Shown: in pieces, positions 32,399 through 42,200 of the stretch
Position numbering within the stretch: the first letter of the stretch is position 1
How the letters are laid out: the number at the start of each line of letters is the position of its first letter
Assembly (NCBI GenBank): GCA_025361335.1
Contig: JANYAK010000049.1
Coordinates: 1-48,542 of the forward strand
Reading direction: 5' to 3'
DNA length: 48,542 nucleotides
DNA from: Coriobacteriia bacterium
GTDB lineage: Bacteria > Actinomycetota > Coriobacteriia > Anaerosomatales > PALSA-660
Translations under genes and position numbers: made by a program
Notes under the pieces: generated by a model
Told to the model about the DNA's origin: nothing
What the model saw: only the letters and a program-made list of their open reading frames with translations
Database searches by the model: none

Positions 32399-33118
32399 CT
32401 ACATCACATCCTCGAACGTGTCGGCGAGCGCCCGCTTCAGCAGATTGCGCTTGAGCTCGTCCGTGAGCTTGGACAGTTCCCCTACCGACTCGACGAGCTT
32501 CTGCCGGGTCTCGGGCGTGCGATGGCGCATGGTGGGCATCAGTATCTGGGAGAAGAGCGCCGCCTCGCGTTCCGCGGAGTTGGAGTAAGTCCGCAGATGC
32601 CTCGCCTCCACTCCGAACTTGCGCAAGTCCCAACACGCGTGCGCGACCTGGATGTCGGCGCGACGCAACTCCTCGCCATGCTCGCCGTCGTCGATGCGGA
32701 CGAGCCCGAACTCCGCGAGTTCCCGAACGAAGGAGGCCGGTAGACCGAGCGTGCTCTGCACCTGGTCGAGCGGAACGGTGGCCACGTCCTCGAACGGGAG
32801 GGCGACCGCCTCGGGCCGTGTGACCATGGGCCGAAGCTCCTCGGGGACCCTCCCCTTGTCGAGGTCCTTCAGCTTCTCGCGGATGACAGCCAGAGGCAGG
32901 AAATGCTCCTTCTGCAGCCGCAGGACCAGGTCGACGCGCGCAGCATCCGATGCGGAGAACTTGCGGTAGCCGCCAGCCGTCCTCTCGGGCGTGACGAGAC
33001 CCTCGTCCTCGAGGAACCGCACCTTGCTGATGGAAAGGTCGGGGTGGGCCGGCTGCAATCCCTCGACCAGCTCCCCGATAGTCATGTAGCCGCGACTGCG
33101 TCCCACGTTGCTCGTCAC
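32399..33118 (-). CDS. MerR-family regulator, FtsR-like
   Basis: This 239-residue regulator has an N-terminal MerR winged helix (YMTIGELVEGL; ISKVRFLEDEGLVTPERTAGGYRKF) and a long C-terminal helical region. A MerR protein directly after a small FHA protein matches corynebacterial odhI-ftsR and mycobacterial garA-Rv1828, in which FtsR activates ftsZ. The GTG overlaps the FHA gene stop by 4 bp; an ATG 11 codons later (33085) is also possible. The FtsR call rests on synteny and architecture. Confidence 0.8.
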   Translation of the reverse strand: MTSNVGRSRGYMTIGELVEGLQPAHPDLSISKVRFLEDEGLVTPERTAGGYRKFSASDAARVDLVLRLQKEHFLPLAVIREKLKDLDKGRVPEELRPMVTRPEAVALPFEDVATVPLDQVQSTLGLPASFVRELAEFGLVRIDDGEHGEELRRADIQVAHACWDLRKFGVEARHLRTYSNSAEREAALFSQILMPTMRHRTPETRQKLVESVGELSKLTDELKRNLLKRALADTFEDVM

Positions 33119-33558
33119 GCTCCCCCACCAGCCAGGAACACCATCTGGAATCGCCCTATCTGCACGGCGTCCCCGTTGCGCAGGACCGCGCGGTCCACGC
33201 TGATCCCGTTCACGTACGTGCCGTTGAGGGAGCCGGCGTCCGACACGGACACCTCGGCTCCCGCGACATCGAGGCGTGCGTGCTCGCGAGATACCGTTAT
33301 GTCGTTCAGGAATATCCCGCTGGCCGGGTCCCGCCCTATGGTCAGGGGGGTGCGGTCGATGTAGAAGCGCTCCCCGACCTCGGGACCCTTGCGCACGACG
33401 AGCAGGGGGCCTTCGGACACGTCCACGGATCCAGGGGCCTGCGGACCATTCCCGACGGCTGGGAACGACGCCGTCACTTCAGCCAGCATGACCCCGCACG
33501 ACGGGCATACGGACAGCCCGCTGTCGACCTCGGTTCCGCACTTCGGGCACTTGTCCAT
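33115..33558 (-). CDS. Zinc-ribbon FHA-domain protein (GarA/OdhI-like position)
   Basis: This 147-residue protein has an N-terminal zinc ribbon (CPKC and CPSC, residues 4-21), a linker, then an FHA phosphothreonine-binding domain with TIGRDPASGIFL, VSREHARL and GSLNGTYVNG. In GarA/OdhI the segment before the FHA domain carries Thr-rich phosphorylation motifs; here a zinc ribbon stands in its place. It overlaps the MerR gene by 4 bp. It may relay Ser/Thr kinase signals to metabolism or division; that is inferred from relatives. Confidence 0.85.
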   Translation of the reverse strand: MDKCPKCGTEVDSGLSVCPSCGVMLAEVTASFPAVGNGPQAPGSVDVSEGPLLVVRKGPEVGERFYIDRTPLTIGRDPASGIFLNDITVSREHARLDVAGAEVSVSDAGSLNGTYVNGISVDRAVLRNGDAVQIGRFQMVFLAGGGA

Positions 33559-33606: not shown

Positions 33607-33876
33607 TCACTGATCGGAGAAGCCGAACTCCTTCGTGTTGAATGCACTGGCGATCTCGGCCTCGATGGCACCGATGACTTCGGGATTCTCGAGCACGTGG
33701 GCGAGCTTCTCGTCGCTGAGGCGGTTGCGCACATACGGATCGTGCAGGGCATCGGTCAACTTCCGGCCGTTGCGAACCTCACGAACGACGTACTCGACCA
33801 CGCGCTCCTCCACGGCGTCGGTCGCGATCTCCTCGAGGAACTTCTTGATCGATGCGCTCAAGCTGGATTGCGGCAC
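33607..33876 (-). CDS. Small hypothetical helical protein
   Basis: This 89-residue soluble protein is predicted to be mostly helical (SIKKFLEEIATDAVEERVVEYVVREV; DEKLAHVLENPEVIGAIEAEI) and acidic overall. I do not recognise the family. The GTG has GGAGG 4 nt upstream. It lies between the rsiG-like and FHA genes with gaps under 50 bp, so it is probably in the same transcript. Confidence 0.7.
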   Translation of the reverse strand: MPQSSLSASIKKFLEEIATDAVEERVVEYVVREVRNGRKLTDALHDPYVRNRLSDEKLAHVLENPEVIGAIEAEIASAFNTKEFGFSDQ

Positions 33877-33922: not shown

Positions 33923-34222
33923 TCAGGCGCCCTCTTCGTCCTTCATCTTCTGATGCCCGGGACGCAGGTCGCTGGCGAGTATCGTGATCAGCTTGTCGAT
34001 GTCGGCCCCCGAGATGACGTCGCCGCCGGACTCGCGCTCGTCCTTCAGCCGACGGACAAGCTCCGCACGGAGGATGTCGATCCTCCCATGGAGGACCCGA
34101 CGCCGGTAGCTGATCGCCTCCTCTTCGCGCTTCAACTCGCTCAGCAGCGCGCGAAGGTCCTCGTTGCTCTTGCTCTCGAGGTCCAGAAGCTCCCCGCCCA
34201 GCAGCCCGTCCTGTTCGTCCAT
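33923..34222 (-). CDS. RsiG-like anti-sigma factor (c-di-GMP-binding family)
   Basis: This 99-residue helical protein carries the RsiG signature. In Streptomyces RsiG the c-di-GMP motif is E-X3-S-X2-R-X3-Q-X3-D. Here Glu34, Ser38, Arg41 and Asp49 are in register and only Gln is replaced, by His45; LHGRIDILRAELVRRL follows as in the family. RsiG holds the sigma factor WhiG inactive when armed by c-di-GMP. Single-motif versions act as homodimers. No sigma factor is encoded nearby. The ATG at 34222 has GGAGG 5 nt upstream. Confidence 0.78.
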   Translation of the reverse strand: MDEQDGLLGGELLDLESKSNEDLRALLSELKREEEAISYRRRVLHGRIDILRAELVRRLKDERESGGDVISGADIDKLITILASDLRPGHQKMKDEEGA

Positions 34223-34324: not shown

Positions 34325-35140
34325 TCACCCCGGCGCGGTGAGCCCAGGTGCGCCGCATCGAGGAACGCTCTGGATGCGGTACGCGCCGGATGCGATCGAC
34401 GCCGCCTCACGCTCGGTGCCGGAAAGCTCGCCCGCCTCCAGCGTCACGCCCAGGACCCGGGCGAACGCCCCCGTCACGGCCGCCACCATCTCGCCCACAG
34501 ACGGGCGTCGACCGAGAACGGCCTCGAGGGTCGCGGTGGTCCGGTCGAGATCGACGGCCTGTGCCCCCGCGAGCCGGAAGACCTCGGCTTCCGCTTCCGA
34601 GTCGCGACTCACGATGAAGGAACCGTGCTGCAGCACGGCGTCACCTTTCCAGACCTGTGCGCTGCCGGAGAGCTTCGCCGCCCCCAGCGACAGGTCGGCA
34701 TGCGTGGCGTGCAGGTAGCAAGCCGCCGAGCCCTTCGCACCCCGTTGGCGAGCCGTGATCTCGGCCGGCACTCCCAGGACACGGTATGCCTCCGCCAGCG
34801 CCTCGCTCAGGTATCGGTACGACGCGGTGATGCCCTTGGGCACCCCGTCATCGACGCCGGCGACCACGGAGTAGGTCAGCTCGTCGTCGTGCAGGACCCC
34901 GCGCCCCCCCGTCGGGCGCCGGACGATGTCGAACCCCCTGCCGGCGCAGGCGCCGCGGTCGACCTGCTCGACCGGCTGAAAGCGCCCGAGCGTCACCGTC
35001 GGGACCTCCCAGCCGTACAGCCGCAGAGTCGGCAACGATCGACGCGCCCCGACAGCGCCAAGGACGGCCGAATCGACGGCCATGTTCTCGGCGCCCTCGA
35101 CGCGTCCATCGAGCAGGAGCCGCCAGATGGGGTCCGACAC
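34325..35140 (-). CDS. Lipoate/octanoate protein transferase (LipM-like)
   Basis: This 271-residue protein belongs to the biotin/lipoate ligase fold, with RRPTGGRGVLHDDELTYSVV (74-93) and the lysine region AAKLSGSAQVWK (Lys156). Cys141 (AACYLHATHADL) sits where LipM and LipL keep their acyl-carrying cysteine, so it is more likely an octanoyltransferase than an ATP-dependent LplA ligase. It follows gcvPB by 8 bp and would modify GcvH, whose lipoyl lysine the glycine cleavage system needs. LipA would have to be encoded elsewhere. Confidence 0.85.
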   Translation of the reverse strand: MSDPIWRLLLDGRVEGAENMAVDSAVLGAVGARRSLPTLRLYGWEVPTVTLGRFQPVEQVDRGACAGRGFDIVRRPTGGRGVLHDDELTYSVVAGVDDGVPKGITASYRYLSEALAEAYRVLGVPAEITARQRGAKGSAACYLHATHADLSLGAAKLSGSAQVWKGDAVLQHGSFIVSRDSEAEAEVFRLAGAQAVDLDRTTATLEAVLGRRPSVGEMVAAVTGAFARVLGVTLEAGELSGTEREAASIASGAYRIQSVPRCGAPGLTAPG

Positions 35141-40971: not shown

Positions 40972-41316
40972 GTGGCATTCCCTCGGCACGGACGGGATCG
41001 CGGATTCTCTCTCGTCGAACTCGTGACGATCATCGCCATACTCGGCATCCTCGTCATGACCGCGATGGCCAGCTACGTCCTTACCGGCGAACGCTCGCGC
41101 GCGCTGGCGTGCCGGGGGAACCAACGCGTCGTCGAAGACGGAGTCGCACAGTACCAGGCCGCCCATGACGGAGCGCTCCCGGGCAGTCTCGCCCCGATAG
41201 CGCTGTACGTGAAGTGGTCCGGTGAGGCGTTCGCGACCTGCCTCAGCGCGCCCTATCCAGCATTCGAGTACGACAGAACGACCGGCGACGTGAGCTGTCC
41301 GATCCACCCGAGGTAG
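40972..41316 (+). CDS. Type IV pilin-like / pseudopilin protein
   Basis: This 114-residue protein has a class III (prepilin) signal: a short basic leader, then G-FSLVELVTIIAILGILVM with Glu at +5 of the predicted mature N-terminus after the prepilin peptidase site RG/FSLVE. The hydrophobic helix would anchor or polymerise it. The remaining ~75 residues form a small globular domain with three cysteines (ALACRG, ATCLSA, VSCPIHP). The GTG has GGAGGAGG 4 nt upstream. No other pilus genes are in the window. A membrane GGDEF-like protein follows 50 bp downstream. Confidence 0.85.
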   Translation: MAFPRHGRDRGFSLVELVTIIAILGILVMTAMASYVLTGERSRALACRGNQRVVEDGVAQYQAAHDGALPGSLAPIALYVKWSGEAFATCLSAPYPAFEYDRTTGDVSCPIHPR

Positions 41317-41366: not shown

Positions 41367-42200
41367 GTGAGGTACACACGGTTCGAGGCGCTGACGATCG
41401 GGGTGGGCGGCGTGGCCATCCTGGCCACGGTGGGTTTCTACCTCCAGCCGCAACTCGATTGGGTCGAGCTGGTGGGCCAGTTCGCTCTGTTGGGGGTCCT
41501 GGTCAGCGCCGTGCATTGGGGACGCAAGGGCGGACTGGTCGGGGCGCTCGTCGCGACAGTCCTGTACGTTGCCCTTCGATTGCCCGACATCACCGCGACG
41601 GGGCTCGGTACCGACATACTCGAGCTCATCGTGATCCGCGCCAGCGCCTACGGCCTCATCGGCGTCATCGGCGGGGAGATATGCGGCCGCATCAAGTACT
41701 TCTTCGCGCGCGTCGAAGACAGCCTCAGCATCGACGAGAGCGCCAGGGTCTACAACCAGCGATTCGTGGCCCAGCTCCTGTCGAACAGCCTGGCCACGGC
41801 CAACCGCTACGGGACCCTATTCTCGATAGTGGTCGTCGAGCTCTCACCCGCCCTGACATCGGGACTGCGCGCGTCCAAGACGGTCTCTCTCGTGCGCGCG
41901 GTGGCCGACTACATCCGCAACGACGTCCGGCTCATCGACGACGTCGGCCGTCTCGATGACGGCCGATTCGTGATCGTGCTCCCCCATACGCCCAAAGCGG
42001 GCGCCAATGTCGCGGGCGATCGTGTCTGCGCGGGGCTTCGGGACACCTTGGGCGCCAAGGACGAGTCGGTATCGGTCCGCGCGCTGTGCTCCAGCGAGGA
42101 CGCCGAAGCGATCCAGGCCCTGACGGACTCCCTGCTCCCCAAGGCCCCCGCCGCGGACTCGCCTCTTGCCGACCCCTTGACCGCGCCGATCTCCCTGTAG
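41367..42200 (+). CDS. Membrane protein with degenerate GGDEF-like domain
   Basis: This 277-residue protein has about four N-terminal transmembrane segments (8-27, 34-50, 56-72, 85-105) and a C-terminal GGDEF-type domain. ARVYNQRFVAQLL and ANRYGTLFSIVVVELS match diguanylate cyclase subdomains, but the active-site GGDEF is replaced by DDGRF (197-201) in GRLDDGRFVIVLPHT. Catalysis is therefore unlikely; it may bind nucleotide or act as a scaffold. GAGGAGGG precedes the GTG. It lies directly after the pilin gene, and a strong hairpin follows. Confidence 0.75.
   Translation: MRYTRFEALTIGVGGVAILATVGFYLQPQLDWVELVGQFALLGVLVSAVHWGRKGGLVGALVATVLYVALRLPDITATGLGTDILELIVIRASAYGLIGVIGGEICGRIKYFFARVEDSLSIDESARVYNQRFVAQLLSNSLATANRYGTLFSIVVVELSPALTSGLRASKTVSLVRAVADYIRNDVRLIDDVGRLDDGRFVIVLPHTPKAGANVAGDRVCAGLRDTLGAKDESVSVRALCSSEDAEAIQALTDSLLPKAPAADSPLADPLTAPISL

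What the first reader, a model, noticed from the sequence alone, without database searches (positions are those of the whole stretch)
33923..34222. RsiG-like c-di-GMP anti-sigma factor outside the filamentous actinomycetes
The c-di-GMP motif is kept in exact register except for Gln to His45. The protein heads a cluster with FHA, FtsR-like and purine genes and not with whiG. An ancestral homodimeric RsiG with a changed ligand pocket could control an unknown sigma factor. A degenerate GGDEF protein and a pilin in the same window hint at a c-di-GMP-linked surface or motility programme.
Basis: partly seen in the sequence, partly recalled or inferred. Interest (0 to 1): 0.65.

Follow-up and report, generated by a model that had tools for sequence, protein, structure and literature searches.

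The report
Single-motif RsiG switch for pili
The small gene encodes a known kind of protein (RsiG) that uses the signal molecule c-di-GMP to hold back one RNA-polymerase sigma factor; it is newly placed here in an uncultured, flagella-less relative of gut Coriobacteria, where the evidence says the switch governs type IV pili.

Summary
The gene lies on the minus strand (34222..33923), encodes 99 aa and matches Pfam RsiG (E 1e-19); its best solved relatives are Rubrobacter RsiG. The E-S-R-H-D motif is exact. The His is no novelty: it is invariant in the order and in 79 of 80 named loci (the other was unreadable); Conexibacter RsiG carries it and binds c-di-GMP (PMC8325347).

The sigma partner is not unknown. 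The same genome encodes a clear WhiG on another contig. Across 397 genomes of the phylum RsiG and WhiG go together (239 both, 139 neither, 19 discordant).

The host belongs to an Anaerosomatales-like Coriobacteriia order, nearly all of which carry RsiG and WhiG and none flagellin. WhiG-type promoters are sevenfold enriched there, almost all intergenic, many just upstream of type IV pilins; this genome's own major pilin has one. The rsiG-FHA-ftsR cluster accompanies single-motif RsiGs only.

Two extras appear new: a FlgM-like gene with a WhiG promoter in 30 of 30 orthologs inspected, usually next to a pilB-like gene; and 13 WhiG promoters each followed by a c-di-GMP-I riboswitch.

Verdict: new member of a known kind in an unusually informative setting.

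The parts
33923..34222 (-). rsiG: single-motif c-di-GMP-responsive anti-sigma factor, 99 aa
   Evidence: ORF; PF22802 E 1.1e-19; PDB 7LQ2-4 relatives; AlphaFold model with one 45-residue helix 20-64 at high confidence and a second helix 72-86
34076..34123 (-). codons of the c-di-GMP motif E34-x3-S38-x2-R41-x3-H45-x3-D49
   Evidence: translation; all five residues invariant in 13 aligned orthologs
33607..33876 (-). 89-aa protein of unknown function, conserved after rsiG in most loci of the order
   Evidence: no Pfam match; synteny
33115..33558 (-). zinc-ribbon + FHA protein (OdhI/GarA-related)
   Evidence: PF00498 E 1.9e-16; best NCBIfam match OdhI, 117 bits, below the equivalog cut-off of 200
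32399..33118 (-). FtsR-like MerR-family regulator
   Evidence: PF13411 E 4.7e-14; position directly after the FHA gene, as described for ftsR/odhI
34325..35140 (-). lipoate-protein ligase-like gene, last of the glycine-cleavage run upstream of rsiG
   Evidence: gene calls and conserved order

Best explanation
The gene encodes a single-motif RsiG. Two copies pair as an antiparallel coiled coil and hold a c-di-GMP dimer through their E-S-R-H-D motifs. In that armed state they bind and silence the sigma factor WhiG, which is encoded elsewhere in the genome. When c-di-GMP falls, WhiG is released and transcribes genes with T(A/C)AAG-N14/15-GCCGATA promoters. In this order these are above all type IV pilins, and also DGC/PDE enzymes, a FlgM-like gene in a pilB-like operon, and secreted proteins. 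Shown here by sequence: family membership, the exact motif, the partner gene with its c-di-GMP-contact residues, co-occurrence, and promoters before pilins in many relatives and in this genome. Inferred from the Rubrobacter and Conexibacter work: dimerisation, c-di-GMP binding, sigma sequestration and the sense of the switch.
For: RsiG family and motif. WhiG in the own genome at C11:9579-10256: 287 bits to TIGR02479, 380.8 bits to the WhiG equivalog NF004935, 339 bits to S. venezuelae WhiG against 175 to E. coli FliA. The sigma2 residues that touch c-di-GMP (K, G, R in LVKYVAGR) are kept in all readable WhiGs of the order; G and/or K or R differ in the E. coli and Pseudomonas FliA aligned. RsiG in 58 of 61 and WhiG over cut-off in 59 of 61 genomes of the order; flagellin in none. 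Phylum co-occurrence 239/4/15/139, phi 0.90. Nine GGDEF matches in the genome, at least four with an intact motif. TAAA-N14-16-GCCGATA: 96 sites in 61 genomes against 14 for the reversed pattern; of 90 examined 88 are intergenic, 75 read TAAAG although the G was not asked for, and 23 precede pilins, the major pilin at 55-78 bp. The own genome has TCAAG-N14-GCCGATAC 71 bp before its major pilin, at the position of the relatives' promoters. c-di-GMP binding by a His-form single-motif RsiG is published. Cultured Anaerosomatales are non-motile and carry pili-like appendages.
Against: No binding, dimer or expression data for this protein or order. In the own genome the relaxed promoter pattern is not enriched over its reversed control (23 vs 22 at one mismatch); the own-genome assignment rests on position and on the relatives. 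rsiG and whiG are not neighbours. Four genomes of the phylum sample have RsiG without a WhiG over cut-off and 15 the reverse, though most are drafts.
Confidence: 0.88

Rival explanations
1. The protein is an RsiG paralogue that kept the fold but lost or changed its ligand, and acts on another sigma factor.
For: Gln to His in the motif; no whiG next to it.
Against: His is the rule in single-motif RsiGs (79 of 79 readable named loci) and C. woesei RsiG with His binds c-di-GMP specifically and not c-di-AMP. Only one RsiG is found in the genome and exactly one WhiG; the other TIGR02479 matches are SigB- and RpoD-like scores of about 115-123 bits.
Confidence: 0.05
2. RsiG has been recruited by its conserved neighbours and mainly regulates the FHA/FtsR (metabolism and cell-division) module, not WhiG.
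For: rsiG-FHA-ftsR order is kept over very long distances in single-motif lineages.
Against: Tight co-occurrence with WhiG and conserved sigma contact residues. In twin-motif lineages RsiG works without these neighbours. The odhI/garA-ftsR pair itself is a general actinobacterial arrangement, so linkage may be plain inheritance.
Confidence: 0.05
3. The switch exists but its main output in this species is not pili (for example exopolysaccharide or secreted proteins).
For: Other own-genome sites lie before a sugar transferase (C25), a Crp-like regulator (C1) and a secreted protein (C61).
Against: The pilin site is the only one whose orthologous position carries the promoter across many families; a second pilin (C34:93 kb) has a two-mismatch site at 55 bp.
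Confidence: 0.2

Closest known systems
Single-motif RsiG of Rubrobacter radiotolerans (PDB 7LQ2-7LQ4; PMC8325347)
   Same: Length, one motif, sequence (49-residue alignment, E about 1e-10), a WhiG partner, and promoters before type IV pilus and DGC/PDE genes.
   Different: Gln instead of His in the motif; different class (Rubrobacteria).
Single-motif RsiG of Conexibacter woesei and other Thermoleophilia (PMC8325347)
   Same: Same His in the motif, shown to bind c-di-GMP; the rsiG-FHA-ftsR gene order is present in Solirubrobacterales loci.
   Different: Its regulon is not described; different class.
Twin-motif RsiG of Streptomyces (PDB 6PFJ)
   Same: Same motif and same WhiG partner family.
   Different: One chain carries both motifs; no FHA/ftsR genes within 1.5 kb in 19 loci examined; it controls sporulation.
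FlgM-FliA anti-sigma-28 system of flagellated bacteria
   Same: The 89-aa protein of this genome matches FlgM weakly and is expressed from a sigma-28-type promoter.
   Different: No flagellin in the order, so the classical export route is absent; linked to a pilB-like gene instead.

Membership tests
RsiG (single-motif) | Match to PF22802 over the curated cut-off | tested here: met
   70.3 bits, cut-off 27, E 1.1e-19
RsiG (single-motif) | E(X)3S(X)2R(X)3[Q/H](X)3D motif | tested here: met
   E34 S38 R41 H45 D49; invariant in 13 orthologs
RsiG (single-motif) | Only one motif in a short chain | tested here: met
   99 aa, one match stretch; one motif helix in the model
RsiG (single-motif) | Cognate WhiG in the same genome with conserved c-di-GMP-contact residues | tested here: met
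RsiG (single-motif) | Specific c-di-GMP binding | not testable with these tools
   published for the Gln and His forms of relatives
RsiG (single-motif) | Antiparallel homodimer that sequesters WhiG | not testable with these tools
   published for R. radiotolerans; only a monomer could be predicted here, and its fold search was uninformative
WhiG regulon | TAAA-N15-GCCGATAA-type promoters upstream of regulated genes | tested here: met
   order-wide 96 vs 14 control, 88 of 90 intergenic; own-genome pilin site with TCAAG
FlgM | Match to PF04316 over cut-off | tested here: inconclusive
   14 of 17 family members match weakly, one passes (25.8 vs 25 bits); the own-genome protein does not match
FlgM | Export through a flagellum | tested here: not met
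   no flagellin in 61 genomes; therefore called FlgM-like only

The most novel reading that the evidence does not exclude
In Anaerosomatales one flagella-derived sigma factor, WhiG, is held by two different anti-sigma factors in cells without flagella: RsiG, armed by c-di-GMP, and a FlgM-like protein that WhiG itself transcribes from a pilB-like operon, as a negative feedback or an assembly checkpoint for type IV pili. On part of the regulon c-di-GMP acts a second time, through a c-di-GMP-I riboswitch placed directly behind the WhiG promoter.
Probability: 0.45. Interest if true: 0.72.

Novelty: new member of a known kind. Interest (0 to 1): 0.5.

Why it matters
RsiG-WhiG is, by its authors' account, the only known sigma/anti-sigma pair targeted by c-di-GMP. 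Finding it nearly throughout a third early-branching actinobacterial class, with the same pilus output as in Rubrobacter and with a fixed rsiG-FHA-ftsR gene order, supports the view that the ancestral job of the switch was surface pili and that single-motif RsiG is ancestral. The order has cultured members (Anaerosoma, Parvivirga) that grow pili; in Parvivirga they appear only on insoluble iron, so the idea can be tested. The FlgM-like gene and the promoter-riboswitch tandem would, if confirmed, add a second anti-sigma and a second c-di-GMP gate to the same circuit.

Tried and rejected
A changed ligand pocket: rejected on the conservation of His and on published binding data. An unknown sigma partner: rejected. 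The window's prepilin and degenerate GGDEF as regulon members: no WhiG-type promoter within one mismatch anywhere in the window. The only one-mismatch consensus promoter in the own genome (C5:3510) lies inside a short ORF (67 aa, cold-shock-like sequence) and is chance. Rfam scan of the window: nothing. Rfam scans of the fetched own-genome pieces: no c-di-GMP riboswitch, but the whole genome could not be scanned. Foldseek with the RsiG model: no significant match, as expected for a lone long helix. Riboswitch polarity: a strong hairpin follows the aptamer, but the terminator scan found none on the transcript strand, so ON or OFF is undecided.

Full report
What is there. The interval holds a 99-codon gene on the minus strand, 34222 to 33923, with good coding potential. 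The protein matches Pfam RsiG at E 1.1e-19, and its nearest solved relatives are the Rubrobacter radiotolerans RsiG chains 7LQ2-7LQ4. The c-di-GMP motif is E34, S38, R41, H45, D49. An AlphaFold model shows one long helix (20-64) carrying the motif and a shorter one (72-86), with loose ends, as expected for a single-motif RsiG. A fold search with it says nothing more.

The histidine. In 13 aligned orthologs of the order all five motif residues including His are invariant, and His was found in all 79 readable loci of 80 named genome records. The 2021 study (PMC8325347) states that His often replaces Gln and can make the same stacking contact, and that Conexibacter woesei RsiG, which carries His, binds c-di-GMP with a Kd of 25 uM, and 1.7 uM with WhiG, but not c-di-AMP. 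A changed pocket is therefore not indicated.

Who carries it. The genome (1.81 Mb, 61 contigs) belongs to an order whose named matching records are Coriobacteriia MAGs, two of them titled Anaerosomatales; I infer the order Anaerosomatales (OPB41). RsiG is present once in 58 of 61 genomes of the order. It was not found in the sampled genomes of the same class outside the order, which also lack a WhiG over cut-off. In the phylum sample 243 of 397 genomes have RsiG over cut-off. The 2021 paper reported single-motif RsiG only from Rubrobacteria and Thermoleophilia and does not mention Coriobacteriia in its main text, so the class is new for this protein; a search of the paper library for both words found nothing.

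The partner. The own genome has one WhiG, C11:9579-10256, with 380.8 bits to the WhiG equivalog model (cut-off 343) and twice the score to S. venezuelae WhiG as to E. coli FliA. The lysine, glycine and arginine of sigma region 2 that touch c-di-GMP in both solved complexes are kept here and in all readable WhiGs of the order. Over the phylum sample 239 genomes have both, 139 neither, 4 RsiG only and 15 WhiG only (these counts were transcribed and do not correct for kinship). The genome has nine GGDEF matches, at least four with an intact motif, so c-di-GMP is probably made.

What it controls. No genome of the order has flagellin, so WhiG is not flagellar here. The promoter TAAA-N14-16-GCCGATA occurs 96 times in 61 genomes against 14 for the reversed pattern. 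Of 90 sites examined 88 are intergenic and 75 read TAAAG although the G was not part of the query. 22 sites precede a pilin and one more a probable one, most of them the major pilin at 55-78 bp. Others precede GGDEF or GGDEF/EAL proteins and CheB. The own genome uses TCAAG: its major pilin (C34) has TCAAG-N14-GCCGATAC 71 bp upstream, at the place where relatives have the exact consensus, and a second pilin has a weaker site. Across the own genome the relaxed pattern is not enriched over its control, so the assignment rests on position and relatives. Pili and DGC/PDE genes are also the targets mapped in R. radiotolerans. Cultured Anaerosomatales are non-motile rods with pili-like appendages, which in Parvivirga appear only with ferrihydrite (PMC9686372).

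The neighbourhood. In the named single-motif loci of Coriobacteriia, Aquicultor-like and Thermoleophilia records, an FHA gene and an ftsR-like gene follow rsiG in every case where the contig is long enough. The odhI/garA-ftsR pair is known to be conserved in Actinobacteria (PMC6683498); rsiG at its head is not mentioned in either paper's searched text.

Two further layers. First, a relaxed scan found TCAAG-N15-GCCGATA just before an 89-aa gene on C60. Orthologs exist in most genomes of the order, and all 30 inspected have T(C/T/A)AAG-N15-GCCGATA 10-14 bp before the start codon, with a random spacer between the invariant boxes. The family matches FlgM weakly but repeatedly (14 of 17 members; best 25.8 bits against a cut-off of 25; the own-genome protein itself does not match), and a profile search against solved structures puts a FlgM chain first, at a non-significant E of 0.018. 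The gene lies after nuoN and is followed by a small membrane protein, and in 25 of 30 loci also by a pilB-like ATPase. I infer a second, WhiG-dependent anti-sigma factor. Second, 13 sites with a long leader before a small secreted protein with an HExxH-type motif all carry a c-di-GMP-I riboswitch at Rfam's gathering threshold between promoter and gene. It was not seen in the own-genome pieces fetched.

Verdict. An ordinary and convincing member of the single-motif RsiG family, in a class where it had not been described, with a predicted pilus regulon.

Noticed in passing
G000 contig C60:43365-43631 (-), locus L252 / L215:9363-9632: FlgM-like 89-aa gene with a WhiG-type promoter 10-14 bp upstream in 30 of 30 orthologs inspected; next to a small membrane protein and usually a pilB-like ATPase, in a flagella-less order.
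   Followed up: yes
L105, L110, L117, L282, L283, L286, L288, L292, L293, L296, L298, L301, L339: WhiG-type promoter followed by a c-di-GMP-I riboswitch and a small secreted protein with an HE(V/I)xHIxDWR motif: two c-di-GMP controls on one transcript. No Pfam family for the one member scanned.
   Followed up: partly
window 40973-41316 (+) and 41367-42200 (+): Minor prepilin directly upstream of a membrane protein with a degenerate GGDEF domain (RLDDGRF). No WhiG-type promoter; its role is open.
   Followed up: partly
window 33607-33876 (-): 89-aa protein without a Pfam match, kept between rsiG and the FHA gene in most loci of the order.
   Followed up: partly
L108, L291 and L121, L122: WhiG-type promoters before a histidine kinase with a 5TMR-LYT sensor domain (scanned in L108) and before CheB-type methylesterases.
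   Followed up: no
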